Shown: piece by piece, positions 5,331-63,971 of the stretch
Position numbering within the stretch: position 1 is the stretch's first letter
Layout of the letters: each line of letters begins with the position of its first letter
Source of the DNA: Apostichopus japonicus
Lineage: Eukaryota > Echinodermata > Holothuroidea > Aspidochirotida > Stichopodidae
Direction: 5' to 3'
Length of the DNA: 64,000 bases
NCBI RefSeq assembly: GCF_037975245.1
Contig: NC_092565.1
Coordinates: forward strand, 15,839,499 to 15,903,498
Made by a program: the position numbers and the translations under genes
Notes under the pieces: model-generated
Databases searched by the model: none
What the model was told of the DNA's origin: nothing
What the model saw: only the letters and a program-made list of their open reading frames with translations

Positions 5331-6830
5331 TTGGACTTATTTATTTACTTTCTACTCTTACCTTTTAATTTTATATATTTGTCTTTTAATTTTAATCTTA
5401 TGCTATATGTCACAGGTATATCTCACCATTTCAAAGTTACAAAACTATCCATCCTGCCACCTGAACTGTTTTTGCTATGTCATGCCTTCACTATGCCACC
5501 TTGAAATACCCCTTCCAGTCATAATGCACTTGACATTGTGTGTGATTTTTTTTCAGACAACATTATTGTATGAAGTCTTCACAGTATGAAGTGTGTTTCA
5601 TTTCAAGAAGTATTCAAATTTTGTTAAGCTATTCCTTCCATTTGAACAAAGTATTTCACTTTGAAGTGATCGAAGTAATTTATATTTCATGCCCATATTT
5701 TCACAGGACATTAAAACATGTTCTTTCATGGAGAGTGTCACACAAATGTTTTTTGTTTTCTTTTTTCTGTTGCTTAAAGTGCCTTATTGTTACAGTTATA
5801 AAATCAATAAAAGACCAGGCAACTCTATTTCCACTGTTGACTTATGTTCTACTATGCATGTGCAAAAGAAAAAGAAAACAGCCCTACTCAAAATATTTGG
5901 TCAGAGTATCCATAGAACGTAATGTATCCAAACACGTCCTGTGTACTGAAAGTCAGCTTTTAATTAAAGTCCCCATATGTGGCAAAACCACCTCATCCCT
6001 CCAAAATACCCTAACTCTTCCCAAAGCTGGTGAACACCACACCCATCCCAAAGCTGGGAAACTCCAAACCCTTCCCCACATCCGCTAAGCACCACATTCC
6101 CTCCCCAAAACCCCTAAAAACACCACACCCCTCCCCTAAACAACACACCCCTACCCAAGCCACAGTACTTAACTTCAATATTGGCAAGCAGTTATGTAGT
6201 GTGATACATGAACCAAACAAGGATTGGTATTGACTGGAAAACTGTTAACTGATATTTATTGATGAATATAAGCAACAGATGAGTACCCAGCTTTGCAGAA
6301 TCTCACTGAGTAAGGGCTACTGTGGAATTATGGTAAGTGGGTAAGTATAAATCATTTGGTATTGTAGGTATAAATCATTCGGAATTGTTGGAAGTTCCTT
6401 AGAAAGCAACTAGAAATAAGGTTTGGCCTAGGCCATGTTACCTTTGTATATTCAATGTGGTATGACCCCTTCAGTTTTGACAACAGACTCAGGAAAATTT
6501 GTGTTACCTTAATAGTTACCACCATTAATTTAGCTAGAAAGGAAACACCATCTCCCTTGCCCCCTCCCCCATTTTGTCTCTCTTACCCCTCCCATACGCA
6601 GCTCTCAGTAATTTCACATTTTACCTAATCATATATTAGAATTTGGGACAAAATTTCTTCCAAACCTTAGCACAACTTAAATTACTTAATTTCACGCCAC
6701 AAAACCTAACATTCCTAATAGACCGTACACTAAAGGAATGGGTTCCACTACATTGAAAACGATTTGAATGAAGTCTTGTCGGTAGTAGCCCATAGCATGA
6801 AAACGGCTTGGCGAAAGTCTACCTAATTTC
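5331..6830. other. Non-coding stretch with C-rich patch
   Basis: No supported exon was seen. Positions 5990-6165 form a C-rich, pyrimidine-biased patch with a loosely repeated unit (CCCAAAGCTGG, CACCACACCC). Open frames through it are compositional and not evidence of coding. A second short C-rich patch lies at 6548-6600. Confidence 0.5.
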
Positions 6831-7324: not shown

Positions 7325-8404
7325 CAGGCGCGGCGGAACGGAAAAATTATTGGGGGGCTAATGTGTTGAGACTATCTAAGCGGAGCGCCACCATCGGTTG
7401 GCGCGGAGCGTACAAGAAAATTTTGGGTTTTTTTCAAACCCCCAGATGGCCGGAAACGGCACTTCCCGAGTGTTTTATGCTGCGAATACCTAGCCCTTAA
7501 ATATGGGTCTCAAGCCTGCAATTTCTCAGATTGAACGAGAAAGTTTGTAAAAACATTGTAATTTGTATATTCGATGGTGTTTTAAGAGAGTAGCTAGTAC
7601 TCGTAGTGTACTCGCAAAGACGTTTTTGAGTGTAGTAAGGGCAGTGGCGGAGCTAGGGGTATTGGTCAGGGGGGGGGGACAAGAATGGTCTGTAGGGCGC
7701 TTTCGACACTATCTAAGCGGAGCGCCACCACAGGTTGGCGCGGAGCGTACAGAAAATTTTTGAATAAAGATACTCTATAGATTGCAGGAAATGACCCTTT
7801 CCGTGCCTTGCTAATTTGTAGATAAACGGAGAATAAATAGGTGTAGTCGCCATTTTGTCGGAAAATTACACCAACAGAATATGACAAATGTCAATAGGTA
7901 GATGAGAGCGCTATAAAATAGTCAATAATAGCGAATAAGTAAAAAGTAGTGAAAAGCTGAAAAGTGCGCCAGCAGTCCATTTGAGTCCGTCAGGGGGGGG
8001 GGGGGCATCTGCCCCACTGACTGTATGGACGCTCCGCCACTGAGTAAGGGGATGTTGGAGAACTGGCTGAAATGAGGCAAGTCATTGTCCTAAGACGAAA
8101 TTGTGTTGCGCTTACCGGTACTCCACGGTACTTCCACTTTTCACGGGGCGTGAAGACGCGGTTGGGGTGACAATGTGGTCTATAGTCAGGGGACGGGCCG
8201 AGGGTCCCCCCAGCATTTACTAAAATTATTACATCTATATAGTATACGTGTGCATCGGACAGATCGACAAGTATGCATTGAAAAATGGGCAGATGCACGT
8301 TTCGGAGCCTTGGTAAATATTGGGGGGCTAATCATGCATTTGCCCCCTCAACTTTTTCATTGGGGGGCTGAGCCCCCCCAAGCCCCCCGGTTCCGCCGCC
8401 ACTG
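7325..8404. mobile_element. Nonautonomous hAT-like element, outer of a nested pair
   Basis: The left end is CAGGCGCGGCGGAACGG. The right end, read inward, is CAGTGGCGGCGGAACCGG. Perfect 8-bp target duplications ATATCTGC flank it at 7317-7324 and 8405-8412. Termini starting CAG with an 8-bp duplication are the hAT signature. There is no transposase. A GCGCCACC..GGTTGGCGC hairpin block sits at about 7371-7470, close to the left end. A second element with its own duplication is inserted at 7642-8042, leaving about 679 bp of this element proper. Confidence 0.9.
7642..8042. mobile_element. Nonautonomous hAT-like element nested in 7325-8404
   Basis: The ends are CAGTGGCGGAGCTAGG and, inverted, CAGTGGCGGAGCGTCC. 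Perfect 8-bp target duplications AGTAAGGG lie at 7634-7641 and 8043-8050. The 401-bp body has no coding capacity and carries G runs at both ends. It has the same GCGCCACC..GGTTGGCGC block (about 7708-7760) as its host element, so a related element inserted into it. Confidence 0.93.
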
Positions 8405-8412
8405 ATATCTGC

Positions 8413-10410
8413 CTGTACAGTTTAGCCTTATGAAACCGTTTACAGATTCTCCGTCACTTGGAAGGAGTCTATTCAACCTGTGGGAACAGACACAGGTTTC
8501 TAATACTTAGGCCTACTACGTACTTTGGTGGGAAAAAAAATAATCTGAAACTTCAGTGACGTGGGTAAAAAGTATGACGGGAAGGAGGGGCGAGTGGTAT
8601 AGTGAATGGGAGGGATGTGGACATAAGCTCCAGTATGTTTGGGGTTTCTTCTCTAGCGGCAATTGCAAAGGTACAACCGTTCAACCTGAACATTTAAGCA
8701 GCCCATCCCCCAATTTACCAAAGTCTCTGAAAATGGGAGGGGACACCCTTCCTCTGGTGCAAATGTGCCCCAAAAAAACTTCTTTCATAGTAATCTACTT
8801 GATAGTTACATTTTGAAAATCAGCCGTTGTGGGCGGGACGTTTCCACTGTACGGTAATAACTACGGAATCGTATAAACGACATAAACTAAATGACATATA
8901 CATCTACATGCACAATCACACAGTAAAAACCATGCAAATCTGGGATTACCAACTTTTTTTTCGTCAGGGACGTCAAAAATATGTAAATTATAATTTCGTA
9001 CACTTTCATACCACCATGGTAAAAAACTATTTTTGATGAAACTTTGATTATCTGTGAAATGGTGGAAATCTGACTTTACTCTTCTATCCGAGTCAGATGG
9101 CTGTGCCAAGGAAGGGGGGGGGGGTGTCAGAGCCGTATATATATATATAGACACGGCTTTGGGGCATGCGTGGGGAGAGACATGTTTCCTCCAATCATGA
9201 TGCGTCCGCCGGCCCACCGAACATTCGGTTGCGGTAAAAGAAAACTAGAACACCTTCTCTTCTGTCTACATTTCCCAGATTTGGGTAATATTAAAGGCTA
9301 ACAAACTGCTACAAGTTCACCGGGCTTTGAAGTTTCAGTTATATTCAAAGTAGTCAAGTAGTAGCAAGAGACCTATATCTGAAAGCAGGGTCCAAACTCC
9401 AGGGCTCGGGACTACCTTCCAGAGAATTTCAGTTCCTCTTTCTGAAACTTTTGCAGGTTCAAGTGCCCCTGGGGCCCAAGGGCTTTAGTATAAAATTCCA
9501 TGCAGATTATTATTCGGGGTTTAATTGCTCGTTACTAGAGAACAGAGATATCTGAAAACGCTCAGCCTGAGCGTTACCCTGGGTCCCCTCTTGACCCCTG
9601 AGATACATTACATAGAAATTAAGGCGTTTAATATATACTAGTGTTTGCGCTCCAAAATCGCTTCGAAAGCGAACAAGACTGTTTAACAAATAATGCCATA
9701 TAGCTGTAATTATATTAAAGCAAGTTGCCGCTTATGTTGTTCAGGTAGCCTATAGTCACTACAGTCGATTGCCGAAAGCTAATTGGAGTTGAAATCGATC
9801 AACTTCCCTCTTGGAAAATGGTGAATGTGCGACTCTGGTTATACGACATTGAAATCTGTCGCAACTTTAAATTTCCTGTAAACTTAAAATTTCAATAAAT
9901 TACATTTTGGATCACCAGTGGAGTTTGGGGGAGGACGCGTTTCCCCGATCTCCTACCGGCCCCTAAATTTGCCCGTAATGTTCTCTTTATACAGGCGCGT
10001 TTTCAGTATTTTGCCTTCTTATCCTGAGGGCATAACTTTTTGCTTGCTCCCAGTTGTCCCCCTACTCTGAAAATCCTTCTAACGCCATTGAAGCTCCTAA
10101 CAAGTCCAATTCTTGTGAATTATCTATCGTTTTGAGGAGCGTTTCTCTCTTTCCAAATTGTAACGAAATGTCTGTTATATGCTTCCGTAATAAAGCTTCC
10201 ATAGACTTTCATTGAAAGAAGGGCGGGCGTGACTGATTCCGCAAAAGCAGAGCTGCACAAAAGTAGTAAACATTACTAAAAGGGTTGGCGTTGCGAGGAA
10301 GCTGGCATAGTCGACAGTTTTCTTAGAAGGGTAACACAGACGTAAGTGTTCGGATCGTTTTGCCAATTTTCTCATTTTCCAAGTGACAAAGCTTATCGAA
10401 GCATTTGAAG
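8413..10410. other. Upstream flank of the DM13/DOMON gene
   Basis: No exon was recognised. Positions 9106-9126 hold a G run followed by a short palindrome around a TA repeat (AGCCGTATA...). Positions 9944-10003 are a reverse-strand copy of a repeat also found at 19733-19793. The last few hundred bases before 10411 should contain the promoter and 5' UTR of the downstream gene. No TATA box is evident at a plausible distance. Confidence 0.4.
9944..10003 (-). repeat. Dispersed repeat, copy 1
   Basis: Its reverse complement matches 19733-19793 over about 55 bp, including the run AAATTTGCCCGTAATGTTCT and a CAGGCGCG junction. It looks like a piece of an unidentified interspersed repeat that ends in a hAT-like CAGGCGCG terminus. 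Confidence 0.7.
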
Positions 10411-41843
<31,433 letters not shown>

Positions 41844-42049
41844 ACAGTAGGTTTTAAAAAAAATGATTAAATTTACATCCTTCAGATACATATATCTAAG
41901 ATCAGCTCATTGCAAATTAGGCAACATTTGATTTTTGAAGAGTGAAAGTTGGAGGGTGTCAAGATGGGAATTCCTTAAATCACATTCTCCGTGAAGAGGC
42001 AGGTAGAAGGGCTTCTGTAGGTAGCCTTACAAATATTTTACATATTATG

Positions 42050-43060
42050 TCACTTACATATCCAACCCTGGCATCATTACCTTACCCCTTGTTTGACTTA
42101 CATTACCTAGCCTGACCTAATACCTTACCTATTATTTGACTTACACAGCTATCTAGCCATAAATGATATCTTTACCTATTATTTTACTATTCATTACCTA
42201 GCGTGACCTCATATCTTACCTATTTTTTTGACGTACACTACCTAGCCTTAACTGATACCTATACCTATTATTTTACTATTCATTACCTAGCATGACCTAA
42301 TACCTTACCTATTATTTAACTTACATGACTTAGCCTGACCTAATACCTTACATATTGTTTGACTTACATTACCTAGCCTGCCCTAATACCTTGGCAATTA
42401 TTTGACTTACATTACCAAGCCTGACCTAATACCTTACCTAATGTTTGACTTACATTACCAAGCCTGACCTAGTACCTTACCTATCATTTTACTTACATTA
42501 CCTAGCCTGACCTAATACCTTACATATTGTTTGACTTACATTACCAAGCCTGACATAATACCTTACATATTTTTGACTTACATTACCTAGCCTGACCTAA
42601 TACCTTGGCAATTATTTGACTTACATTACCAAGCCTGACCTTATACCTTACCTAATGTTTGACTTACATTACCAAGCCTGACCTAATACCTTACCTAATG
42701 TATGACTTACATTACCTAGCCTGACCTAATACCTTACCTAATGTTTGACTTACATTACCTAGCCTGACCTAATACCTTACCTATCCTTTGAATTACATTA
42801 CCTAGCCTGACCTAATACAAATTACTTATTGTTGGAATTACATTACCTAGCCATGACCGGTTTCTTACCTAATATTTGACTTTTCATTACCTACCCTGAT
42901 ATCTCCTCAATTTTTTTGACTTACTTTACCTAGCGTTTACAATATTTTCAACTAGAACTTGATTTGTACTACCTATTCGTAAATGATACCTTACCTATAA
43001 TTTGTCTTTCATTAACAACTTTACTTCATTTAACTTACCTATTATTTGAGTTACATTTAT
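42050..43060 (+). repeat. 43-bp minisatellite, ~22 copies
   Basis: The unit is GACTTACATTACCTAGCCTG followed by ACCTAATACCTTACCTA and (A/T)TGTTT. The 43-bp spacing is seen, for example, from 42421 to 42464. Copies degrade toward both edges. It starts about 200 bp after the stop codon of the DM13/DOMON gene. Confidence 0.95.
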
Positions 43061-48169: not shown

Positions 48170-51100
48170 ATGTTGACTTTTAAATGTGCCATCTTTTTGG
48201 GAATACTTTCAATGTGCTTCTGTGGAGCATTTGGATGTGATCGACGCTCGGTGGAGAGGGTCTACGTCAATGTTGATACTGGTAAGTATTCCTTACTACA
48301 TTCTATAGAATAAGTTTTTAAAGAAACGTGGTGTGAAGTGGGCGGGGTTGGAGGGGTGCTTTGTGACCTTTGCTGCCCATCTGTACAGAAAAGAATCACG
48401 GTACGGTACCTCGTCAAAATGAAAAACCCATGGAAGCCGTAACTGTAACATTTATGGCGCATATATGCAACAGACATGAGTTTCTCGATGTAACGGATAG
48501 GCAGCTTCATTGCCGTTGGTTACTTTGTTGGAACGCCGCTATCTTCCCAGGTTCCTACATCTGTATATAATGGTAGGAGGGTACGTTACATGAATGTCAA
48601 GGAATCATTTGATATGGTACCTGAAAACAATCCGTTTCTCTGAAGTATACAAAAATCGCCATTTGGAATGGGAAAGTAAAACAAGGTTTGCGAATATAAC
48701 AGTATAATACATTTAATTTGTGGGACAAATTTCTGTATGACATGAGAAGGTGAATCACTCAATTACTATACAAGAAGTATAGAATCAGGCAAGTGGGTTG
48801 TGTCTTTGCTAGAATGAGAGTGTCCGATAATTATGAGTGAATATTACATATCTTGTTCAGAGAAATGCAAAGTCATTGAACGCAAAATGTAGCTCGAAGG
48901 TTGTCATTAGTTACGGAAAATGTTTGTCAGGAGTAGTGGCGTATAGGCAGAGGAGGTAGGTGGGAGCAAGGGCGTAGGAACCGGGGGGCTGGGGGGCGCC
49001 AGCCCCCCCAGTGAAAAATGTGGAGGGGCGGAAGTATCATTCCACCCCCCCCCCCCGGTTCGCAAGTCAGAAAACCCCTTCTTCATTTCCAAATGAGAAA
49101 AAAAATCTCATTTGGAGCACCAAATTGCATCTTAGGCCAGGTGAAAATACAAAATTAAGTTTACAAAATGGAGTGGGTATTGAAGTGTGCTATATTGCAA
49201 CAAATTGCATCTGAGGCCACCTGGAAATGCAAAACTAATTCCAAAGGGGAGGGGGACACCCCCTCCCCTTAGACCCCTCCCCCAGGCCGGCCATCAGTGT
49301 TCAGCCCCCCCCCCCCACTCAAAAGTACCTTCCTACGCCACTGGGTGGGAGTAAGGGTGGGATCTCCCCACAGACGTTTTCAGGTACGAAATGGGTTGGC
49401 AAAAGATATAAATAGCCATGATATATATGCTATTGGATAGGACACTTGTTTTATAGAACTGTGTGATTTGCTTCTCAGAAGGTTTGTTTTTTCAATTAAG
49501 CGATATCCTCAGCATGGAGAGAGATTTCTCTGACCAAGTTAACTTGATTCAGTGATTGTCAAAGTTCCGTGCGTCGTATGTAACTGGATTGTCGTTTATT
49601 TAATTAAAATATAAACATATTTTCATTTGGTTCATGCATACACTATAGATGTAAGCGATATATACCTACGTGTAACTATACCCACACGTATATACTGTTA
49701 CGTATTTGTAATCGTTTCATATCGTTAATATGTACGGTACAGGGCAGTATATCCACTGAGGACAATATTACACTATAGGTAATGTTACTTTAGGTTGTAT
49801 GATATTACGTAACACTGGCGGATCCAAGGGGGGGCAAGGGGGCCATGGCCCCCCAAAGGTGAGCCAAAAAGTGTTTCCGAACATCCGCTAAAACATATGA
49901 TTGGAACTTAAAAAAAATCGAGAGGAATAGCAGTGGTAGACTAGTCTAAACCTTTTCGTTTTCTGGTTTAAAATTAAATGCAGAGCTCCCAACTGACCCG
50001 CAATTCGCGGGAATTAGACCCGCATTCTAACACCCAAACCCGCTGACCCGCACAAGCGTCCGAAAAAAACCGCATTGTAATTGTCAAGTATACATAAAAA
50101 AATTTGCATCAAATTTTGACTTAGCAACCATCATTTCTTTAGCATTTAGCATAATAGAGTATAAAACCTCCTTTACAGCATCATTTGAACCTCAAATTAG
50201 CCTATATTTCTTTTCATTTGGGGCGAGCAGCGAACATTTTCATGCCACGGGAAAGAATGAATTATCACCTACTATTCAATTTATTGATGTTACACACAAA
50301 AAAATGCATATTTCTCAGAAAATTTTGGGTGACAAAAGCCTTTCTAAGTGCCACCATTTTACATGTAGGCATCACCAGGATTCCAAAAAAATCCAAAAGG
50401 GGGAGGGGGACACCCCCTCCCCTTATACCCTTCCCCCAGGATGGCGATTCGATGCATGGACCAGCATTTGCATTCTCAAGAGTTGGGAGCTATGTAAATG
50501 TATGAGCATGAGGAATTACAGTTTAACACCATTTTGCAGTTACAGGCTGGTTGTAAGAAATTTATAACCTATGAGAAATAAACTTTCTTGAGAAAGATGA
50601 TCCCAACTTTGTTTTATAAATATTTTAGAAAATTACACCTGGGAAACATTTTTTTTAGAAGTAAATTTACATCACCATTGTACACTTTTGTCGCACCAAA
50701 TTGCATCTGAGGGCATTCAGCAATAGAAAATTTTCCAAAGGGGAGGGGGTCACCCCCCCTTAGACCCCTCCCCCATATCACTCTAATGCCACTTTGGCCC
50801 CTCCCAAACAAAGGCCCTGGATCCGCCAGTGTTACGTAATAGTATATTACTTCATATTTTAGTAGTCTTAGTGATATAGGTAAATCTCAAATTCCCCCAT
50901 GATCAACTGTGGTTTGATCGCTTATCTCCAATTTGCCTCTGAAAGCAATATCATAGCAATTGTTGGTGTTTTGGGGGTAAATCTTTTTTTCTCTTTAATC
51001 CAAACTGATCCCATACATTTAAGGGGATCAAATAAAACGAGTGCATTTGTTGCAAAGGGTTTAAGATTGTGTCTTCGAGAAAGAAAACAAATGTAATCAA

Positions 51101-53870
51101 TTAATTAATTTGCCTTTTCTTTACAGTTGATATGCAAGAGGTATGTTTCGATGGGTTGGGATGTTTTAACAACAGCCTGTATTGTCACCGATTCGGTTTC
51201 CCTCCCGACCATCCGGATGCGACAAATACTCGGTTTTACTTATACACCAGATCAAACCCAGATCAACCGGATCAGCTAGATAGAAACGACAAGAAGACAT
51301 TTGGTCGTTTTGATCCTGTCCGAGAAACTAAAATAATCTTTCACGGTTACATGGATAGCCACCAAGTATCACATATGGTCAACCTGAGAGAGTCGATTTT
51401 ACGCACAGTAAGTGAAAAGATTAATAACGACAGGGGCGGATACAGGTTTTACAAAAGGAGGGGTGTGTGGCTTTCAGGTTGTTGATATCGACTCCTTTAT
51501 AGATGGGGGTGGGGTGGGGGTGGTGGGTATATCCCCAACGGAAGAAAACTCAGACTGGTAGTCGTGCTAATAACTACCTTAATTTTCGTGTGTAGCTGAA
51601 AAAGTATGCACACTCGCAGGCTTTCCCCTGGATATCCGCACACTGAATGAATGCCTACAAAATGATGAAGTTTTAGTTGCAGTTTGAAATTGACCGTAAC
51701 CACTGTCAGATAAATTTACTTTTTAATACCATTTTTGCGTTTGATTGCTAGCATTTGTCAAACAAATGTACGGAAGGTTAACTTTAATCAGGCATGTTGC
51801 AACAGGAAAGTTATTATCTTCAATAACTCATTTTCCAATATATTGTAGTTTTTCTTCAGTGACCAAAGTACACCAAATATTTTAGTGATTTTGTTTTAAT
51901 ATTTCTATTTAGCTTAAATAATGTCTTTGATTCAATTATAAGATTATTAAAACAATGGATTTACCATGGCGAACAGGGCAGAACTAAACATACAGACGTC
52001 ATCATGGAATTGGTGGTAAGAGAAAAAAAATCAGATATTTTAAATTTGAATATCGTAAAGTAAAATATAGTTGGATAATTGCCTAAATATAAGCGCAAAG
52101 GTTTGTGCTATGTTGTAGCACTATCGATGATATATCGACACTAAAAGTATATAGAAAGACATACAGAAGCGCATATAAACGGAATGCTTGACTGAAGACA
52201 TTTGATGTGTAATTTTAATAAGTAACATGTTTAAATCGTGACTCCTATAGGCTATACTTTATAATATGATGCGCTGTTTCCTATATATATGATTATTGTT
52301 TACACTCTCACAGGCTTCGTAGACAGGCCGGGCACAGGGGAGGCGACTTGTCCTTCCCACCAAACGTCCACCCCAGCGCAGACTACATGTTTGCCCGGGT
52401 CCACCTAAGCAACCATCACATGTACAAAAACTGCCCTTCCGACATAAACGCGGTCCCTCCTACTCAAAATTCCTGGCTCCGGACCTGTTTATTAATATTC
52501 CAAGCTGATGATGTCATTACATTTTACTCTTTACTTTATTCCACCCACAGGATAACGTTAACCTGATTATGGTCAATTGGAATGGAGGGGCTGATGGACA
52601 CTATCACACAGCACGTCTAAATATTAGAGTCGTTGGTAGACAGACCGCTACCATGATAAAGTTCATCAGAGAGAACTTTAACTCTGATATGAATATTCAT
52701 TTAATTGGTCATAGCCTTGGAGCTCATGCTGCTGGGTATGCAGGCGAGGAAGCTGGTGGAATACAAAGAATCACTGGTATTTAAATATATTCTTCCAAAT
52801 TCTTGCAAATTTAATATATTTACTATTTATTTGGACAAACGACTGTGTATGGGAGGCTATCACTTTGGAGTTATATCCTTACCACATCACGTGACTTTAT
52901 GTGAAACTGAAGTAGATTGCTCGTGCGCAGTTGTAAGAAACAATAGCAAATTCAGTCGTAAGATATAAGCAAACCTTTCTCCATTGATGGCGATCAAAAT
53001 AAATTTAGATAACATGTGCCAAGCCGTCATGACGTCATCGCAAGCGAATTACAATACTGTTCTTGAGAAGCAGTACTCGCGAGAAGGAACTTCGATATAA
53101 CGATCAAATCAAATTGATATGAAAGCAAAATTAAAAGAAATTCATATTCCGTCAAGCTGCTTTGAGATATTGAAGATATGTTTTACAATCTTATATCGAC
53201 AGGGCTGGACCCGGCTGGTCCTTGGTTTAGAAATGAAGTGAATCCTTGCCGCCTAGACATCACAGATGCTTCGTTTGTCGACGTCATACACACCAATGCA
53301 AACGCATATGGGTTTGGCCTCCCGGATCAGGTAGGATTTCGGTGATATCAAAATAGGACTGAAGGGCATATTTTGATTAACCGTAACATAACACCCCCCC
53401 CCCCCAAAAAAAAAAACAGTGGGAAGCTGCAAATGTAGATTTTTCGAAGCGTAATTTCTAGTACATATTGAAGCCGTATCAATGTGGTAGGTTAGTGTTC
53501 ACGTAACTGCATGTATTAAGTCGGTAACATGATCCAATTTTATCATTCCCAAAATCAAACCATTTCTTGTTTTTAACAGCTTGGCCACCAAGACTTTTAT
53601 CCAAATGGCGGGTCGAGCATGCCAGGATGCGGTATGTTTAGCGTTATCTGTCATCATCTTCGCAGTATTGGATATTTCATTGCAAGTATGAGCTGTCCAT
53701 TCACTGCGTACCGATGCGACAGCTGGGAAGATTTTACTTCTGGTGTTTGCAACACTGACTGTTCTAACGGAGTGTGTGCTGAGATGGGATATCACGTAGG
53801 GCAAAACCAATCAAGTGGAAAATATTACCTGAGAACCGAGAAATATGAACCATTTTGCTCTTCAAACTAA
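48170..53870 (+). CDS. Secreted single-domain pancreatic-type lipase, short lid (phospholipase A1-like)
   Basis: Five exons: 48170-48281, 51127-51407, 52551-52776, 53203-53330 and 53580-53870. All junctions are GT-AG and phases are consistent; the sum is 1038 bp, or 345 residues. Residues 1-22 are a signal peptide. Exon 2 carries the family N-terminus (EVCFDGLGCFNN, NTRFYLYT, TKIIFHGYMD). Exon 3 has VNWNGGA, NIRVVGRQ and the nucleophile motif GHSLGAHAAG (Ser186). Exon 4 has GLDPAGP (Asp209) and DVIHTNA. Exon 5 has CHHLRS (His275). The triad is complete. The lid between the paired cysteines, Cys266 and Cys273, is only six residues, against about 23 in pancreatic lipase. The protein stops where the PLAT domain would begin. 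Both traits point to phospholipase A1-like or galactolipase-like substrate use, which is inferred. It probably acts in digestion or is otherwise secreted. No other gene shares its transcription unit. Confidence 0.95.
48967..49343. mobile_element. Nonautonomous hAT-like element
   Basis: The left end is CAAGGGCGTAGGAACC and the right end, inverted, CAGTGGCGTAGGAAGG. Perfect 8-bp target duplications GGTGGGAG lie at 48959-48966 and 49344-49351. The 377-bp body has G/C runs near both ends. The GGGGAGGGGG ACA CCCCCTCCCC hairpin block (about 49195-49290) is close to the right end. It lies in intron 1 of the lipase. Confidence 0.92.
49813..50831. mobile_element. Nonautonomous hAT-like element hosting a nested element
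   Basis: The termini CACTGGCGGATCC and GGATCCGCCAGTG are perfect inverted repeats. Perfect 8-bp target duplications TTACGTAA flank them at 49805-49812 and 50832-50839; being palindromic, they make the inverted repeat look longer. The interior lacks transposase. The G/C hairpin block at about 50693-50775 is near the right end. A second element occupies 49981-50494. It lies in intron 1 of the lipase. Confidence 0.93.
49981..50494. mobile_element. Nonautonomous hAT-like element nested in 49813-50831
   Basis: The left end is CAGAGCTCCCAACT and the right end, inverted, CATAGCTCCCAACT. TAAATG flanks both ends (49975-49980 and 50495-50500); the missing two bases of an 8-bp duplication may have mutated. 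The GGGGGAGGGGGACACCCCCT block at about 50393-50450 is again near the right end. Removing this element restores a host element of about 500 bp. Confidence 0.8.
51431..51645. mobile_element. Possible small hAT-like element in lipase intron 2
   Basis: It starts CAGGGGCGGATACAGG just after exon 2 and may end at GGATATCCGCACACTG. The flanks AATAACGA and AATGAATG match poorly, so the boundaries are doubtful. Confidence 0.3.
52316..52505 (+). other. GC-rich, coding-like segment in lipase intron 2
   Basis: About 180 bp is clearly more GC-rich than its surroundings. The frame containing 52348-52350 stays open with a protein-like composition: LSFPPNVHPSADYMFARVHL followed by SNHHMYKNCPSDINAVPP. No family was recognised. 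It is not needed for the lipase, whose exons 2 and 3 join in frame without it. It could be a retrocopy or transposon fragment. Confidence 0.35.
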
Positions 53871-54029
53871 ATAAGCAGGCTGGACACTTAGAATAGTATC
53901 TTGTCGAGCAATTCATAGTTTTAGATTATGTTCGTAATTTAAGGTGTTGACTATTAAATAATGATGACAAAATCAAAACTTGAAGCAAAACGGAAATACA
54001 TCAGTTTTGAAATTAATCGAAGTTTTAGA
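53871..54029 (+). other. Start of the lipase 3' UTR
   Basis: The region follows the TAA at 53868-53870 and is AT-rich. There is no AATAAA before the palindrome that starts at about 54030. The first clear AATAAA is near 54609, which would put the palindrome inside the 3' UTR. Confidence 0.4.
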
Positions 54030-54233
54030 CCAACATGTTTGTTATTATACAAATAATGAATGGTTATGAGTGCAATAGTGCAAATATTTCATGAGTTGAA
54101 AGATGTAATTTGTTCCATTCAACGAGGCGCAGCCGAGTTGAATGGAACAAATTACATCTTTCAACGAATGAAATATTTGAACTATTGCACGAATGGAAAC
54201 CATTCATTATTTGTTTTATACAACATATTTTAT
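54030..54233. repeat. ~200-bp near-perfect palindrome after the lipase stop
   Basis: The left arm (54050-54123) and right arm (54137-54213) are near-perfect inverted copies, 74 and 77 bp. They share TTGAAAGATGTAATTTGTTC and CAAATAATGAATGGTT. The loop is the 13 bp GAGGCGCAGCCGA. Weaker complementarity continues outward to about 54030 and 54233. This resembles a foldback MITE. No target duplication was identified. If transcribed it forms a very stable hairpin. Confidence 0.93.
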
Positions 54234-54469
54234 TAAGATGGGTAAAATGCACTCATGCAACAGATTGTTTTGAACAGACAGGTTTCTCTGCTCTCTTACC
54301 ATTGAAAAAAGGGCTACCAAAAAAGTATAACCCATGGTTCTATTTCATAGAGTGGAATAGAGCGGATTTTGCATGCAATCAACGAGCCATTGACCAATCA
54401 AATGACCAGAATGCAATTAGATGTTGTATAAACTCCTTTAATATATATAACTCATGAATTGCACTGGTG

Positions 54470-56789
54470 AACCACGTTATAGAGCATCACGGATACCAAA
54501 CTTAACCTGAAACCAGTTCTAAAATATGAAACCTTGTTGCAGGTACTGTATGGTTTCAAAGCAAGCATTACCATTAGCATTGTCGAAATGAACGTTATCC
54601 CCTAAAGAAAGAATAAACATGTAAAACAGTCAAACTTATATATACATGACTTTCACCTGTGATTCTTATATACGGTGACCGGCTTGCGTATTTTTTTCTT
54701 CCCCCAGGACGAACGTGGGTTTCTGGTTTTTTCAGGAATTTACAAATTCGTTTGAAATCAGAGTTAGGGTTTAGAAAGTGGGAGACCGGCTTTACACACC
54801 TTCTACTTGAAATCAGTGACCTTTATACACCGCTCTAGTTGATGTGTTTGTTGGAAGGAACTTGTAACAGATGCAGTGTATACGTTTTCACGATGTAGGC
54901 TAACGATTATCCTCCATGTATTAAAGGATTGGTTCAGGTGTCTGACATGTCTATCTTGTATGAAAGAGCTTAAAAAGACAAACAGAATAGTGAAGAAACT
55001 ACCATGATAGAATTCTCCGTTAAGGAGATATCACATTTTGAAGATTTCAAAATAAATTTCTTTGCAAATGACTGGTGTAGAAAGACTAACTGTGAGGGTG
55101 TGATGTCACATCCTCACTTCCTTAACATGTGTCAATATATTTCATTAAAAAATAATTACATTTTTTTTCACAAATCTAAAAAATATAATCAAACATTCTT
55201 CAGATGCTAAATCTCAAATACTTCCCTTGACACATAAGAGATCTCCTGACGTATATTTTGGTTGTAAGTCATAAAATCTTACAAAATATTTTAATAAAGT
55301 AACAAAAACTTTTCAGGAATGTGAGGATATGACGTCACAGCTAGTCTAATTTCAGCAGTTTCTACACAATCAGATAGAACTTTAAACTTGAATATCTCCT
55401 AAACGGAAAAAGATATTTGAATAATTTCTTCACTATTGGGTTTCTTTTATTGCCCTCTTTCATATAAGATAAACATTTGTGACACCTAAACTATTCCTTT
55501 AATCAATTGCACAAAGCTACATGTTGGCAATAAAATTTATGTTGAAACGATCGTTGACTTAAATGATTGACTAATGATTGTTTTCATCAGACTAATTAAC
55601 TATCGCAAGTGAAAAATGTTCGCATCTTTCAGTTTAGTAATCTAAAATGAAATATCGCTGATTTCACTATACACGTCTATATCCGTTACCTGAAAATTTG
55701 AGGTATTATGGGCCGGGGAATTTCATATTGTTGACAATGTTATTGTATAGACATTTCGCGCTTCTGCTATTGCTGATTGCTATTGGTCAGTTCCTTGTAT
55801 CTGTAGGTTGAGTTAGTTTGAATTGGTTTTTCTTTCAGATACCCTTGTATACAATTACTAATCTCTTCTAAAAATGTCAATACACCTTATCGTCTCACCA
55901 TAACATTACTTATACCGGACTAAACTTTTGGAATCATGCATTCCTGATCATTTAAAACTCCCTTGTAGCAAATCCGCCTTTAAGAATAAGGTAAAACGTT
56001 ACTTAATTAGTCGGCTGGCGATTAATGCTTTCATCTAAGGCTCACAGACCTTATGTGTTTGTGTTCATCTATTCTTCTTGCTTTGTTTTGCCTTGTCTAG
56101 TTTTGATAATTATACTTTACGTAATTCTGTTATGAAATGGAAGCCGCCTACGTTTACAAGCTTTGTATAGCTATCTGTGGGTTCCTCCAAAGCTCGTTCA
56201 CTTTGTTATTTTGTATTTTGTTACAACAAAATGAGTTTAAATAAATGTTACGAAATCGAATTATCATCTCATGTTTATAGAACATGTGTGAACTACGTTG
56301 ATAAAGTGTTATATCAATAAATATGGAATCAACCAATCACGTAATCACGGAGATGCGTCTTTTGGAAGAGCTAAATTAACCCGATTGCCTGTGGACTGTT
56401 ATATTTCAAATGAACGTTATTTTAGAATTGTAATATTCCACCAAAATGTGCTAAGTGAACTGGCCGCATTATTTGAATAAAAGATCTCTTCATAATTTCC
56501 TTTTTGTGATTGATAGTAAGTTACAGAACGCTTCTGACCATATAGGTGTGTATCGAGTGGACGAGGGAGAGAGTGGACGGAAATCATTCAGCAAATGTAG
56601 AGTTTACAATAATGATCACAATTTCACGCCAGGATTTCATAAGTTCAAATATCCTTGTACTCACGTTTTCTCTAGTAATTTTTTCTTGTGTGTGTTTCAT
56701 ATGTGTGAGATCTCTTATGTGACAATATAGGCTGCAATTATAATGTATTTTTAATTAATGACGTAAAGTCGAGAAATAATCGCTTTACG

Positions 56790-56790
<1 letters not shown>
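54470..56790. other. Intergenic, no gene recognised
   Basis: The stretch is AT-rich. Open frames of 60-90 codons (for example 55004-55210 and 56455-56730) have no recognisable motif, no splice partners and compositions expected of AT-rich DNA. An AATAAA at about 54609 could end the lipase transcript. Confidence 0.45.
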
Positions 56791-58215
<1,425 letters not shown>

Positions 58216-58329
58216 GGTAACAATACAAGAAAAAGACTGAATGACTCGAATCATGGGTGTAATATTTGTTGTTATGTTCAATTGTCTTGCTTCCTAATGC
58301 TGAATGACATATCGCGAGTGGATCAGCTA

Positions 58330-58726
58330 ATAATAATAATAATAATACACAGTTCTTATAAAGCGCAAATACACACTTAAGTCTCAGTGCGCTGATTATT
58401 ATTAACCCCTGGTCATTGGTAACTTGTCACACCCACACACCAAAGTGTGCACAATTCAATCAATCTCTCCTGGGGCACCACAGTGCACCACAACCACGTG
58501 TCCCCTGGGGGACTTCCCATAGGGTGCAGCCACAAACCGGCGCACGCAACTATATTTACAAGTTACCTCGCAGGTCCCCATTTATACACCTGGGTGAAGA
58601 GAGGCAATGGAGATAAAGCGCCTTGCCCAAGGACACAACGCAATGATCTGGCCAGGGCTCGAACCTGTAATCCTTAGATCACAAGTCCACTGCCTTAACC
58701 ACTTGACCACAACGCCCCCCCCCCCC
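58330..58726 (-). mobile_element. tRNA-derived SINE, full length, copy 2
   Basis: On the minus strand the head has an A box (TGGTCAAGTGG) and a B box (GGTTCGAGCCC) with tRNA-like spacing. The body follows (CCTTGGGCAAGGCGCTTTAT, TTGCCTCTCTTCACCC, GGTGTATAAATGGGGACC). The end is GCGCTTTATAAGAAC with an ATT-repeat tail. CAGCTA flanks both sides (58324-58329 and 58727-58732), a likely 6-bp target duplication. The conserved body resembles SINE cores widespread in marine animals; the exact family name is not certain. Confidence 0.88.
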
Positions 58727-58897
58727 CAGCTAGGGAGCGATGTCTTCTAAAAGTATGGTATAGGGATGCAAATGCGGCTTTCAGGAAGACTATGAATTTA
58801 CAAAATGCCCCTGAGCAAGTTTCTATGCTGCCAACGGAGGAACAAGTTCAAAGTATTAACCCTAAGATATTGACTTGGTATCAAAGTACCACATCCA

Positions 58898-58944
<47 letters not shown>

Positions 58945-58946
<2 letters not shown>

Positions 58947-59925
58947 CAAACTATGAAAGAAACAATTACTATACAAGCTAAAGAAGAATAAGTGACTAAA
59001 TCTGCTGCTGCAGTTTATACAACTTGGGAAATAATTAATCCTGCAGCGCCTGACTATGACGATGTTTCATATACAATATGGTATACTCAACGACTTGGCG
59101 CACTGTATTAGCTATAGAGCGAGACTTTCTTTTTCACTTCGAACCCCAGTGAAGGCTTTTGCCGATCTTTTGCACCTCATGCTTGCATTAGGAGCCCTAA
59201 CTATTAGATAATCAGCATAATATCTCAACCGATACAGTGGCGCGACGGCTGAAAGAGCAGATATAATGTTTTAGCTCAATATCGGATAAAATTCACTACA
59301 TCAAAATTAAATTCAAACGTAAGATTGAGGGTATGTGGCGATTTTATATATTTTAAGGATTTATCATCTTTAGGCTGTTGTGAAAAGGAAAAGGTCAACG
59401 GTATTTCGACAGATCAGTCCGTTACTGAATACGAATCCATGGTCCTGTTTTGAAACCCTTCTATGATGGGCGGTATAGCAATTCCGGACGTAAGAAAGAG
59501 ACCTTGTAATTGTTTTACATTAAAAACACTGCTCCATTGCAGAAGTGATAATTGTAACGACCCATGTAACCCGAACGGATAGTTAAAAAATGTAGTCCCA
59601 AGCCTTATTTTACTTAATTTAGTTTTATGCACGTGTAATCCTTACTAGATCGTGGTGGACTGGGCATAAATAATTGATATCGCCTCAGTGATCCCGGTGA
59701 CGCTGGGACTTTGAACCGAGTGAAGCATTTTGGGCCCATGGTGAAACTATACTGCATCATTTCAGATCAAGAGGAAATTGGCGCCTCGGGTCTAGCAATA
59801 TATCGGTTCCCGAGTCGGTAAATATTATGACAAACTTAACGATTATAAAATCATGCAGCCGATGCTTACATTCTTCATAACGGCCATAACGGCAATAAAG
59901 TAGGATTAATATTCGGCATAACCAG
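58945..59925. other. Intergenic, no gene recognised
   Basis: A TA array ends at 58944. Beyond it no exon, RNA gene or transposon terminus was identified on either strand. Confidence 0.45.
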
Positions 59926-60160
59926 TATTTTCTAATAGGGTTGTGAATGAGTGGAACGGTTTGCCTTAGAAAGTTGTACTTGCAAGTAGTGTCAATGGGT
60001 TTAAGAATGCTTTGCACAAGCACTTTAAGCATTGTAATCGGGTCTGAGTGTTTGTGTCTTCAGTTTTTTTCTCTCTCCTATATAGGGTCCTTGATGGGGA
60101 CAATTGAGTGTCCCCCTGATCCTTTTTTTTTCTACTAAACTAAACTATAACTAAACTAAA
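59926..60160 (+). mobile_element. LINE 3' end with (CTAAA)n tail, copy 2
   Basis: It starts at the SNRVVNEWNGLP motif of the reverse-transcriptase C-terminus and is closely similar to 26800-27024. The GGGTCCTTGATGGGGACA 3' UTR block and CTAAACTAAACTA repeats follow. The 5' end is truncated. Two copies sharing this tail define one LINE family. It lies about 470 bp upstream of the exportin-7 start. Confidence 0.9.
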
Positions 60161-60626
60161 TTTTGCTGTCCGAGTCATTGACTTTCACCAATTATCGCTG
60201 CTGTAGGCTGGTTTCAATGCACGCGTCAATTTTACCACCAAAAAGTGCAAGTTTATGCCATTTACGCCAGTTTATGCCAGATCTTTCTGTGAGTGGTTAA
60301 TGGTACACATTTGGGACCGGGACCTAGCGTGCATGCGACTCCTTATCTTACGGTTATCTTTCACCGCATACTTTAACCAGGGACTTGCTATCTTAATGGC
60401 AACTTCCTGCTTTAACAACGCTATAGCTTGCGCTCAGTAAAGCAATTTAACTTTGACTTCTGTATGGCGATTTGTTTTTGCTGCGCTTTTTGGCACCCAT
60501 TTGCTTATCATAACCATTTTGGAACGGGGTTGGCTTTCCCCAGTCTAGCGTTTTTCTCAATTCCATAATGGTAACTGTAGTTTGAAGTTACAAATTTGTT
60601 CGCGCTAAACCAAACCAGAGGAAAAC
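60161..60626. promoter_or_regulatory. Exportin-7 upstream region (putative promoter)
   Basis: Non-coding sequence lies between the LINE tail and the likely exportin-7 start codon. No TATA box was identified. The interval is short, so promoter function is inferred from position only. Confidence 0.3.
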
Positions 60627-63600
60627 ATGGCGAATATAATAGAACAGGTGCCCAGGTTTTATTCTCAACAATTAACAAAACTCTTCTGGGATACTTTTCT
60701 TGAAGCATTTCATATATGTCTTTTGAAACTTATCGTAGTCACCTGAAGTTACGAATAACATATATTTAGAGCGATGTTTACTACAGAACCATGTTTTAGG
60801 CTAATCTCAATTCACCTTAATATGTTAGGCTCTTAGAAACATGTCCTAGTGTTACATGTAAACATGTACCGAAGTCTAGACTTCACTTGGCTTCACCTAA
60901 CTTGTGTAGGCCTACAGCACAGATCACATGTAGCAAAATAAGAGTAAAACGAAAGATTTGCTCAAAAATTGTCGAGATTATTTACTAACTATTGTACCTT
61001 TTATGTTTTTGTTAGGGCTGGTTTGATTGATCTTGTTCACATCAAAGAATTATAGAGTGTTCTTCATTCATTATTAATTGGAATGAATGAGATGAATTCT
61101 CAGTATAGTCTTTGGATTTAGCCTCAGCCTAGACTTAATCCTAAGCTAGCCTTGGATGCCTTGAATATTATGGTGGTATACATTAACTTCACATGTCCCC
61201 TAACTTTGTATAAGTACTGTCTCGTACAAGGCTATGTTAGCCTAGCTGTCAAATTATAGCCACTTTTTCAATCACAATTTTAATCTGCAAAGCATTAATG
61301 AAATGGCTTAATTGCCACAGTGAAGCAAGGATATATTAATTTTGTATTTGAGACACTTAACTAGATTATTCCGCCCAATTTGTGAAATTATACAGTAAAC
61401 TTCCAATGCATGTGCAAAGTTAGGGAAATTTTTTCCTGCTCTGAGCATTTTGCTTCCCAACCTTTACATGTGTAACTCAAGATTTCTATTTCTGGCAGAA
61501 TCTGGTCAAACCATCCATGAAGTAGCATAGCTAAAGGATAGAACTAAACCACTGAGCAACATGAGGGATATTTTTATCACTGCGATACTTGAAAAGAACA
61601 ATAAAAGAAACTGTCGCAAATTTAACATATACCATCATACTAGATCGGGGGGGGGGGGGGATAGGCTGGCCCAACTTAGAATGAATTTCCATGCTTTGTG
61701 AGTTAAATAGGAGGAATAGCTCTTCAACCTTTAGCCCCTGCCTAATACTAGTACCAGGGGTGGCGATTTGTTTCAAATATGGGGGGGGGACATTTGCTTG
61801 GGTGCAGGCGAATTACTATCAAAGCAGAGCGCCACCATTGGTTGGCGCGCAGCGTACAAGAAAATTTCTGGTTTTGATAGCCCCCCAGATCACCGGAAAT
61901 GGCACTTCTCGGACTTGAAAATGACCAACCAGATGTTTACTTTTGCCTGAGAACCAAGTTTTTCCCAATAGTTTTTTTTCATTCATAACCTTTTTCAAGA
62001 TTGTCATCAGTCACACTTCATGTTCGACCTCATCGCATCTCCTGTGGATCATTGCTTTTGTAGGTTATTCTACGTAACGCCCCACAATACCCGTCAGCCC
62101 CACTTTTCAAGGTTTTAAGCCCATTATTTGTTCAGAATTTGAATAATAAATTCACTTCAAATCATACCCATAATGTTGCACAAAATTTCATCTATGGACA
62201 ACCAATATTGAAAAACCACCTTCAATCCCTAACAGACCGGTCAAAATTGCACGAATAGAGGGAAATATGATGCAGGATGTTGGTCAAGGAATTTTCGAAA
62301 ATTCAGACACAGTTAATTTCTTGGTGTACATATATTAAAACCTCTTATAACGGCTACTATAAAATTATAACCTCCTCCCCTTGGCTACGCGCCTGCGGTT
62401 AGAAATCTTGTAGGAAACAGGTCAAATGGAAACCCTGTGAACCCATATCGATGTGGATCATATATGTGATTGTACGTACTTACACTCATACACAAGAGAT
62501 GTACAGACAATATGATAATAATCATGAGTGACAACATGCTATACGGTCAGTGGTCACAAAAACGACCACGAAGAGTCATTTACCTCATGCAGCATGTGTT
62601 GGATGAAGTTTTAGCCACCGCAAAATATGATTTGGATAAATAATCTCACGCATTATTTTCTATTTATAGCCACACAAAAAAATCATGCCACCAAATATTG
62701 GTGGGGGGGACACTAGTTACTATTAGATATACCGTATATCCCCCACCTAAAATATTGGGGGGACATATATATACATATATATATATATATAATATATATA
62801 TACAGGGTTATAGCCAAGCCGGCCGGCGGCGGCCGGTGGTAACCGCCACTCACGCCTGCCGGCCGGCATTGGAAGTGAATAAACAGTCCACCGGCCGGCA
62901 CAAAAAAATAGTAAAATGCTTGTGAAATACAACAAAAGTAACAAATTTATCTTTCCCTTGCCGTAAAACATGATAATAGCGTCACCTTTTTCTGTTATTT
63001 ACCAAAATACCCTTGACCCCACTGGGGCGTTGCCCTGGACCCCACCAGGGGCCCTTAAGCGGGCCCCTGGACCCCTGGCCGTGAGATGCAAGAGCTTCGC
63101 TCGCTACGCTTCGCAAATTTATTTAACCAGCACTCACAATCTCCTAGCTATAACCCTGTATATATATATATATATATATTTTCCTTATTCATCGGCAAAC
63201 CAAATTTCATTACGGATGCGGTCCGTCTAGGTATTCATTTCGAAAAAAGTAAAACCTATACTTTCGGCTGTAGTAACAAATTGTGACACGGTTAGACAGG
63301 CGCCATGCGAGAGATTTGCCAGGTAGGGGCGAAGCTTGTAGGCAAACTATCTAAGCGTAGCGCCACCATAGGTTGGCGCGAAGCGCAAAAGAAAATTTTG
63401 GCCGAAAATGCCTCCCAGATCGCTGGAAATGGCACTTCCCAGGCCTTGTAAGTTGCATCTAAGCATTTTCTATTTTGAAATTATTAACGATATCATGAAA
63501 AAACTACAAAAAATATGCTAAAAAAAAACTATGCCACCAAATATTGGGGGGGATATTAGATACTATATCCCCCCACCTAAAATATTAGGGGGGACATGTA

Positions 63601-63971
63601 CCCCCCATGATCGCCGCCCATGACTAGTACACAGCGCATCATCGGTGTCATGATCCAACAACCATAATGCTATGACTGAGAGCCCACTAGTAAGAGGCAT
63701 GTCGTCAAGAGCAACTGTGGACAAAGACACAATTGATAAGTGGGGTTGCCTTCTTTATGTCAAAGCTTTGTCATTTCATTTCACGTTCATCTACTACCCA
63801 GCTTTCCCACTTTTTCATTCACTTTAGGACCTGGTACAGTTAGAAAGACTTTGTAAGCAGCTCTACGAGAGTCCTGACAGTGCACAGAGAGCACTAGCCG
63901 AAAAAGCACTGGTTGAGTTTACCAATGCTGCAGATCTCAACAAATGCCAGATGCTCTTAGAAAGAGCTGAT
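60627..63971 (+). CDS. xpo7: Exportin-7, N-terminal two coding exons (partial)
   Basis: The securely identified exon is 63828-63971, with a CACTTTAG acceptor and GAT|GTAAGT donor, 144 bp in phase 0. It encodes [17 protein letters not shown], then [10 protein letters not shown] and [11 protein letters not shown]. This is the N-terminal HEAT region of exportin-7, an importin-beta family nuclear transport receptor that binds Ran-GTP and moves cargo through the nuclear pore. The residues fit exportin-7 better than its vertebrate paralogue RanBP17. A start exon at 60627-60647 (MANIIEQ, strong Kozak context, GTG donor) joins in frame and has the expected length before the QLE..CKQLYE motif. Its donor CAG|GTGCCC is weak, so this exon is less certain. 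The roughly 3.2-kb first intron is largely transposon. The rest of this usually ~1,090-residue protein is beyond the right edge. Confidence 0.92.
61755..63622. mobile_element. Composite hAT-like element in exportin-7 intron 1
   Basis: The left end is CAGGGGTGGCGATTTG and the right end, inverted, CATGGGCGGCGATCATG. Perfect 8-bp target duplications ACTAGTAC lie at 61747-61754 and 63623-63630. The interior contains two direct copies of each of two blocks: the GCGCCACC..GGTTGGCGC block (61817-61912 and 63346-63444), and a block with CACCAAATATTGG and ACCTAAAATATT (about 62686-62766 and 63532-63602). It looks like two related elements joined under one outer duplication, with a third small element at 62803-63158. 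No transposase. Confidence 0.88.
62803..63158. mobile_element. Small nested element in a TA array
   Basis: The termini CAGGGTTATAGC and GCTATAACCCTG are perfect 12-bp inverted repeats. They are flanked by TA repeats on both sides (TATATATA), compatible with an 8-bp target duplication inside a microsatellite. The left part is very GC-rich (GCCGGCCGGCGGCGGCCGG). A CCCCTGG-rich part follows at about 63015-63080. No coding capacity. Confidence 0.8.

What the first reader, a model, noticed from the sequence alone, without database searches (positions are those of the whole stretch)
7325..63622. Ten hAT-like elements fall into two groups defined by a fixed subterminal hairpin block
Block A (GCGCCA..TGGCGC, followed by GGAAA.GGCACTTC about 60-80 bp later) occurs five times, always inside elements 7325-8404, 7642-8042, 56904-57930 or 61755-63622. 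In each it starts about 45-65 bp from one end, counting 56904-57930 as inverted; the fifth copy (63346) is internal. Block B (GGGGAGGGGG ACA CCCCCTCCCC, then GACCCCTCCCCCAGG) occurs five times in 25181-25641, 30306-31153 (weak), 48967-49343, 49813-50831 and 49981-50494. Each time it is plus-oriented and ends about 35-85 bp from the right end. No element carries both. Such placement suggests transposase-binding or replication hairpins that define two lineages whose other sequence has diverged.
Basis: seen in the sequence. Interest (0 to 1): 0.8.

Follow-up and report, generated by a model that had tools for sequence, protein, structure and literature searches.

The report
Swapped end modules of hAT transposons
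Several different jumping-gene families in what looks like a sea cucumber genome carry one of two closely similar 100-base blocks near one end, even where their jumping enzymes are only distantly related, so the block looks like a swappable handle for the enzyme rather than a mark of two lineages.

Summary
The two blocks and their placement are real. Block A's palindrome (two free bases) has 9,171 exact matches and block B's hairpin 2,577 in the host genome, against 0 for reversed patterns. Of 88 sampled copies, 71 lie 39-96 bp from a known family terminus, 0 of 88 on the mirror side; 31 of 86 have matching TIRs and TSDs, 0 of 86 mirrored. Twelve representative elements share the block but not their termini. 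Transposase-coding relatives carry the same blocks 3' of the gene; one is complete (5,519 bp, perfect 8-bp TSD, no block at its 5' end). The 'two lineages' reading fails: A and B both occur on both main branches of the transposase tree, and two transposases about 26% identical share a block about 90% identical. The B hairpin fold is not strictly kept. Two of the nine listed elements are nested parts of amplified composites. Best reading: a subterminal docking module for the transposase, exchanged between hAT families. The closest printed parallel found is the coral piggyBac CMITE group. The host is probably Apostichopus japonicus. Binding was not tested.

The parts
7325..8404 (-). A1 hAT MITE, TIR CAGGCGCGGCGGAACG/CAGTGGCGGCGGAACC, TSD ATATCTGC; looks like a deletion derivative of the 796-aa element (L080+L112)
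7365..7490 (+). block A copy 1; palindrome 7385-7404, starting 61 bp from the left end
7642..8042 (-). A2 hAT MITE nested in A1, TSD AGTAAGGG; the same nested junction occurs in L062 and L077 (both sides), L067 (3' side) and L086 (5' side)
7695..7826 (+). block A copy 2; palindrome 7722-7741
56904..57930 (+). A3 hAT MITE, TSD ATCAGTCG
57758..57876 (-). block A copy 3, near the right end of A3
61755..63622 (-). A4 hAT MITE, TSD ACTAGTAC
61809..61931 (+). block A copy 4, subterminal
63344..63462 (+). block A copy 5, second direct copy, as in the A4 relative L051
25181..25641 (+). Bc element, TIR CAGGCATGAGACT/CAGGGATGAGACT; 6-bp TSD in five other family members, 7 matching bp here
25485..25613 (+). 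block B in Bc (hairpin 25549-25571, 3 mismatches)
30306..31153 (+). B2 hAT-like element, TSD TGGAATAT/TGGAAGAT
31001..31078 (+). block B remnants without hairpin
   Evidence: two fragments, 12.2 and 11.6 bits
48967..49343 (+). Ba hAT MITE, TSD GGTGGGAG; the most common B family in the sample (24 of 53 B copies)
49181..49310 (+). block B in Ba (hairpin 49246-49268, exact)
49813..50831 (+). Bd hAT MITE, TSD TTACGTAA, host of nested Be
50689..50780 (+). block B of Bd, imperfect hairpin
49981..50494 (+). Be element nested in Bd (6 matching bp TAAATG); the same junctions occur in L011, L015, L033
50338..50462 (+). block B of Be (hairpin 50400-50422, exact)

Best explanation
Each block is a roughly 100-bp subterminal module near one end of hAT transposons and their MITEs, on the 3' side of the transposase gene where a gene is present. 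It is most likely a cluster of transposase docking sites. Block A has an inverted GCGCCA/TGGCGC pair inside two direct GCGGAGCG copies. Block B has three CCCCTCCCC-type units, one inverted, around TTAGA. Bound as double-stranded DNA by the N-terminal zinc fingers of the transposase, it would make the two ends unequal so that one left and one right end are paired for cut-and-paste. The module has moved between hAT families by exchange of end segments, so families with different TIRs and distantly related transposases carry nearly the same block. Shown: position near one end, genome-wide copy number, presence in transposase-coding elements, sharing across TIR types and transposase branches with sharp edges, tandem growth inside one family. 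Inferred: binding by the transposase, the need for end asymmetry, recombination as the route of exchange.
For: 71 of 88 sampled copies have a known family end 39-96 bp beyond the palindrome on one side, 0 of 88 on the other (the end strings were taken from these same elements). TIR/TSD pairs: 31 of 86 against 0 of 86 mirrored (20 of the 31 are one family, Ba). The best local matches of all 10 A-A and all 21 B-B pairs among 12 representatives contain the block or its remnant and none runs to the terminus. Of 22 transposase loci read on the 3' side, 10 loci of 6 families carry the block in what appears to be their own 3' end: A in L080/L085, L086/L095, L087/L088; B in L079/L089, L083, L081. In L080/L085 and L086/L095 homology runs through the block and stops at the terminus. 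L080+L112 is complete with TSD ATCGGATA on both sides and a single block. Both types occur on both main branches of the transposase tree. L080 and L087: 25.8% protein identity; 75 bp of block upstream of the palindrome 0.91 identical, flanks 0.60 against a random mean of 0.57; 0.90 over 109 bp of block. Precedent: in Hermes two subterminal repeats form a quasi-palindrome bound by two BED zinc fingers, and end asymmetry is needed for activity (PMC10368747, passages). That gene-less MITEs carry the block points to a cis transposition signal (inference).
Against: No binding data. The zinc finger (C-x2-C..H..H, e.g. YCLAC..HSVCEYH in L079) was seen by eye; Pfam reports only DUF4371 and the hAT dimerisation region. 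8 of 22 transposase loci had no block at E < 1e-4 in the 2 kb read and 3 had only weak or partial matches, so the block is not universal in hAT here. The 5' side was read fully only for L080+L112, and partly for L079, L081 and L083 (L113); the only 5'-side block there is a Ba MITE beside L081, so 'only 3' of the gene' rests on few loci. L083 and L081 are single copies without a found 5' end; L088 has a second TIR-like site 0.8 kb inside its 3' end. The sampled copies were picked by the block, so its presence in them proves nothing. Neutral spread of a recombination-prone G/C-rich block is not excluded.
Confidence: 0.47

Rival explanations
1. Neutral hitch-hiking: the G/C-rich palindromic block is a recombination or template-switch hotspot, so end segments are exchanged between abundant nested hAT copies; the block has no own function.
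For: Nested composites that amplify as units exist (A2 in A1, Be in Bd; A pairs 329-338 bp apart in 4 of 99 neighbouring pairs of listed places). Tandem 138-bp arrays of block B exist. One B copy continues into an inverted half (C1:8872199). In L096 an A3-like body is joined to a different terminus at the block edge.
Against: Does not by itself explain the fixed side and tight distance to the terminus (e.g. Ba 68-76 bp, A6 53 bp; 0 of 88 mirrored). Because the sample was picked by the block, retention across families cannot be used against this view.
Confidence: 0.25
2. A transcript-end element: the block is the 3' UTR or polyadenylation/termination signal of the transposase gene.
For: It lies 3' of the ORF in the same sense in the 10 loci with an own block.
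Against: Gene-less MITEs carry it. The distance from the gene varies from about 0.2 kb after the ORF (L081) and 0.7 kb (L080) to about 1.8 kb after the dimerisation domain (L087, L088), while the distance to the terminus is tight.
Confidence: 0.1
3. One reading: two vertical hAT lineages, each defined by its hairpin, with the rest diverged.
For: A and B are not together in 51 bounded elements.
Against: Transposase branches are mixed for block type; L080 (A) is closer in protein to L083 (B, 35%) than to L086 (A, 30%). The A1 and Ba families share the opposite end.
Confidence: 0.1
4. A single-stranded or replication hairpin needed for mobility.
For: Exact 10-bp arms in 19 of 48 B copies chosen by flanks only; one complementary double change in a tandem-array unit (C1:2189309).
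Against: 15 one-sided pair changes and one non-complementary two-sided change against 1 complementary; long-ORF elements with half-lost or imperfect B hairpins (L081, L079, L083, L089); folding z-scores mostly weak; hAT cut-and-paste has no single-stranded substrate that I know of (recalled).
Confidence: 0.06

Closest known systems
CMITE, coral piggyBac MITEs (Wang et al. 2010, PMC2872659; abstract, passages and one discussion section read)
   [quoted passage not shown] tandem arrays; new composite element made by insertion; authors suggest the region helps transposition and cross-mobilisation
   Different: piggyBac, TTAA TSD, elements of about 100 bp; the origin of the internal region was not found. 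Here hAT, block near one end (two copies in A4), and present in several transposase-coding elements
Hermes (hAT, Musca domestica) left-end STR1/STR2 quasi-palindrome (PMC10368747, passages read)
   Same: Palindromic subterminal site at one end, asymmetric ends, zinc-finger transposase of the hAT superfamily
   Different: Hermes sites are AAGT-type, the palindromic pair within the first 27 bp; here GC-rich blocks roughly 40-185 bp from the end, shared between families; binding untested; L080 matches Hermes chains only in the C-terminal region, E 0.012 at best
hAT6 (6-bp TSD hAT group; PMC12730594, passage read)
   Same: Bc family has 6-bp TSDs in the 5 other copies with both ends found, of 6 examined
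   Different: No transposase assigned to Bc, and it carries the same block B as 8-bp TSD families

Membership tests
hAT superfamily DNA transposons (elements carrying the blocks) | 8-bp target-site duplication | tested here: met
   Perfect 8 bp in six of nine window elements and in 30 of the 31 pairs found (that search demanded at least 7 of 8); the Bc family is an exception with 6 bp
hAT superfamily DNA transposons (elements carrying the blocks) | Short TIRs of the CAGNGGCG type | tested here: met
   Bc and Be have divergent TIRs
hAT superfamily DNA transposons (elements carrying the blocks) | Transposase with hAT C-terminal dimerisation region in the autonomous copy | tested here: met
   L079, L080, L081 proteins: PF05699 and DUF4371 above cut-off; complete element L080+L112
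Transposase-bound subterminal repeats (Hermes-like) | Zinc-finger domain of the transposase binds the repeat | not testable with these tools
   no binding data
Transposase-bound subterminal repeats (Hermes-like) | Asymmetric arrangement at the two ends | tested here: met
   One block A in the complete 5,519-bp element, at one end only; mirror side 0 of 88; exception: A4 family with two direct copies
hAT6 | 6-bp TSD plus hAT6-clade transposase | tested here: inconclusive
   6-bp TSD in 5 of 5 other Bc copies with both ends found; no transposase assigned

The most novel reading that the evidence does not exclude
The block is a portable 'passport': a subterminal module recognised by several distantly related hAT transposases, spread between hAT families across TIR types, transposase branches and even TSD classes (8 bp and 6 bp), so that whole MITE communities share one mobilisation code and can be cross-mobilised.
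Probability: 0.25. Interest if true: 0.75.

Novelty: new variant of a known kind. Interest (0 to 1): 0.5.

Why it matters
How one transposase moves many MITE families with little shared sequence is a long-standing question. Here the shared part is small, has sharp edges, and can be followed into elements whose transposases differ widely, so the docking hypothesis becomes directly testable. It also warns that sharing a subterminal block does not mean common descent of the whole element, which matters for repeat classification.

Tried and rejected
A-B homology: alignment of the A and B consensus upstream parts was not significant (136 of 2000 shuffles as good), and profile cross-searches gave best E-values of 0.08 (B on A) and 0.58 (A on B). 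Both have CTTAGA after the palindrome, but I do not claim common origin.

Block A as an internalised pair of TIRs: 31 of 500 shuffles match as well, not supported.

Rfam (0 hits), tRNA (0), and exact palindromes in viral contigs (0 and 0): nothing. No collection here holds other named animal genomes, so spread to other species was not tested.

L096 was first counted as an autonomous element with block A. It was dropped because the block belongs to an A3-like element lying 3' of the ORF. The wA1/wA2 rows compared overlapping stretches and are not used; one search replaces them. In one search the L087 entries toward the terminus are cut by the end of the locus and are not used. In one search the 36-bp random comparisons reached 0.92 once, so I rest on the longer stretches. 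One search cut the joined L080+L112 element one base short (5,518 instead of 5,519).
Full report
Host. The window is G000:C5:15839499-15903498 of a 671,581,487-bp genome in 35 contigs, one of them 46,036,110 bp. The published Apostichopus japonicus assembly has 671.6 Mb, 34 scaffolds and 23 chromosomes of 18.21-46.02 Mb (PMC10344927, passages). The totals and contig numbers are close but not identical.

Observation. The elements and blocks are present as described in most points. Corrections are in the observation check. The two most important: the A palindrome has an 8-nt spacer, and two of the nine elements are nested parts of composites. The nested Be-in-Bd junctions of the window recur in L011, L015 and L033. 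The A2-in-A1 junction recurs at both sides in L062 and L077, at the 3' side in L067 and at the 5' side in L086. A-A pairs 329-338 bp apart make up 4 of 99 neighbouring pairs among the 100 places listed. So the composites have been copied as units.

Genome scale. Exact A palindrome with two free bases: 4614+4557; exact B hairpin: 1304+1273; reversed controls 0. With the hairpin left free and only the flanks fixed, block B gives 1806+1830, control 0. The copies read came from the start of the contig lists (C1, C2), so they are a sample of convenience. In 88 distinct copies (35 A, 53 B), 71 have one of 13 family end strings 39-96 bp beyond the palindrome, and 0 of 88 on the mirror side. The end strings were taken from these same elements, so the test shows placement, not membership. 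The other 17 are 9 in 138-bp tandem arrays, 2 with other termini (L003, L010), 4 truncated, 1 interrupted by another element's TIR, and 1 A copy (L074); the split is my reading of the printed rows. A TIR+TSD search that knew no family ends found a partner in 31 of 86 copies on the expected side and 0 of 86 on the mirror side. Twenty of the 31 are the Ba family. The rest run beyond the fetched stretch, are damaged, or have 6-bp TSDs.

What is shared. Twelve representative elements (5 A, 7 B) were compared over their last 260 bp. The best matches of all 10 A-A pairs and all 21 B-B pairs exceed the 99% shuffle level. The A-A matches run from about 53-75 to 150-186 bp from the terminus, and none of the A-A or B-B matches reaches the terminus. 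Of 35 A-B pairs, 4 exceed the level, one of them at the TIRs and two in the AT-rich stretch before the palindrome. At the other end, several families share TIR plus a G-run palindrome; the A1 and Ba families are alike over 62 bp there although their 3' blocks differ. So ends appear to combine freely.

Transposase-coding elements. A PF05699 search scored 150 of 633 candidate loci. I read the 3' side of 22 of them (2 kb for most). Ten loci (six families) carry a block in what appears to be their own 3' end, in one orientation: A in L080/L085 (796 and 624 aa open), L086/L095, L087/L088; B in L079/L089, L083, L081. One locus (L096) has a block that belongs to another element, three have weak or partial matches (L097, L099, L100; L097 also has an A block in the opposite orientation beyond its B end), and eight have none at E < 1e-4 (L082, L084, L090-L094, L101; L101 has a 10-bit match). 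In L080/L085 and L086/L095 the two copies are homologous through the block and part within 3 bp of the terminus. L087/L088 are homologous up to the block and have different 3' flanks, although L088 has a TIR-like site 0.8 kb further in. L079/L089 are homologous to the end of the L079 locus, with different 3' flanks. In these four families the block therefore seems to move with the gene. L083 and L081 are single copies, and a search of 1.4 kb on the 5' side of L083 did not reach its 5' end. L080 with L112 is a complete element: TSD ATCGGATA on both sides, 5,519 bp, one block A. A1 MITEs match both of its ends at roughly 89-95% and look like its deletion derivatives. On the 5' side the profiles found no block in L112, L113 and the upstream part of L079; beside L081 there is a Ba MITE. 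The 5' sides of the other loci were not read. The proteins of L079, L080 and L081 are DUF4371 plus hAT dimerisation proteins.

Block type against transposase. In a tree of 12 transposase pieces, one branch holds A (L080/L085, L086) and B (L083), and the other holds A (L087/L088) and B (L079/L089, L081). The L083+L080/L085 node has support 0.97 and the second branch 0.89. L080 and L087 proteins are 25.8% identical. The 75 bp upstream of the palindrome are 0.91 identical, flanking 100-bp stretches 0.60 (random mean 0.57). Over 109 bp of block the figure is 0.90, and 0.51 outside (no random run with that measure). L080's block is closer to L087's (0.90) than to L095's (0.83), although L086, the better-covered copy of the L095 family, is on L080's branch. 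Vertical descent of the whole element hardly gives this; exchange of end segments, with or without selection on the block, can.

Hairpin or docking site. In 48 B copies selected only by flanks, 19 hairpins are exact, 17 have another length and 12 have base changes; changes hit one side of a pair 15 times and both sides twice, one of these complementary (array units are not independent). Transposase-coding elements have imperfect hairpins (L079, L083, L089) or have lost one arm (L081). In the 100 listed rows, where A flanks were fixed, I read 11 with a damaged arm and none with a compensated one (by eye). Repeated short units are visible in both blocks: GCGGAGCG twice directly around the A palindrome; CCCCTCCCC-like units three times in B. 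This is what a docking array would look like. In Hermes, two subterminal repeats form a quasi-palindrome that takes two BED domains, and unequal ends are needed for activity (PMC10368747, passages). I therefore prefer duplex docking over a folded strand, at 0.47.

Related phenomena. The B family Bb carries 138-bp tandem repeats each with a block: 7 units listed at C1:2188359-2189208 and 4 blocks in the TSD-bounded L044 element. The Bc family, with block B, has 6-bp TSDs in the five other copies with both ends found, of six examined, as described for hAT6 (PMC12730594, passage). The nearest printed case I found is the coral CMITE group (PMC2872659). That I found nothing closer rests on nine searches of the open PMC library, in which I saw listings only, apart from passages or sections of the four papers named. 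Repbase itself was not searched.

Verdict. A real and well-placed observation; a known kind of thing (hAT subterminal sequence) in an uncommon form (one module shared across transposase branches, TIR types and TSD lengths). The mechanism is inferred, not shown.

Noticed in passing
window 120-786: Element with perfect 14-bp TIR CAACGAGGTAAATG and a 7-of-8 TSD; no block found there by the profiles; superfamily not assigned
   Followed up: no
window 42022-43057, 37165-37731, 35891-36446, 24390-24791: Tandem arrays with units of about 43, 56, 168 and 14-88 bp
   Followed up: no
G000:C1:2188359-2189208 (L048) and L044, L047: Tandem arrays with block B, 138-bp units, belonging to the Bb hAT family; one unit (C1:2189309) has a complementary double change in the hairpin
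   Followed up: partly
G000:C1:8872199-8872290: Block B whose hairpin continues into the inverted left half, as if template switching occurred at the hairpin
   Followed up: no
L096:108-1513 (ORF orientation): A3-like element whose homology stops at the block edge and is followed by a different hAT terminus
   Followed up: partly
L051 and window 61755-63622: A4 family carries two block A copies in direct orientation, one near each end
   Followed up: partly
window 5131-5586 and 51105-51482: copia-type gag fragment (PF14223, E 1.3e-7) and a possible lipase exon (PF00151, 22 bits, below the Pfam cut-off of 27)
   Followed up: partly
window 26811-27021 and 59928-60147: 90% identical interspersed repeat, same strand
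   Followed up: no
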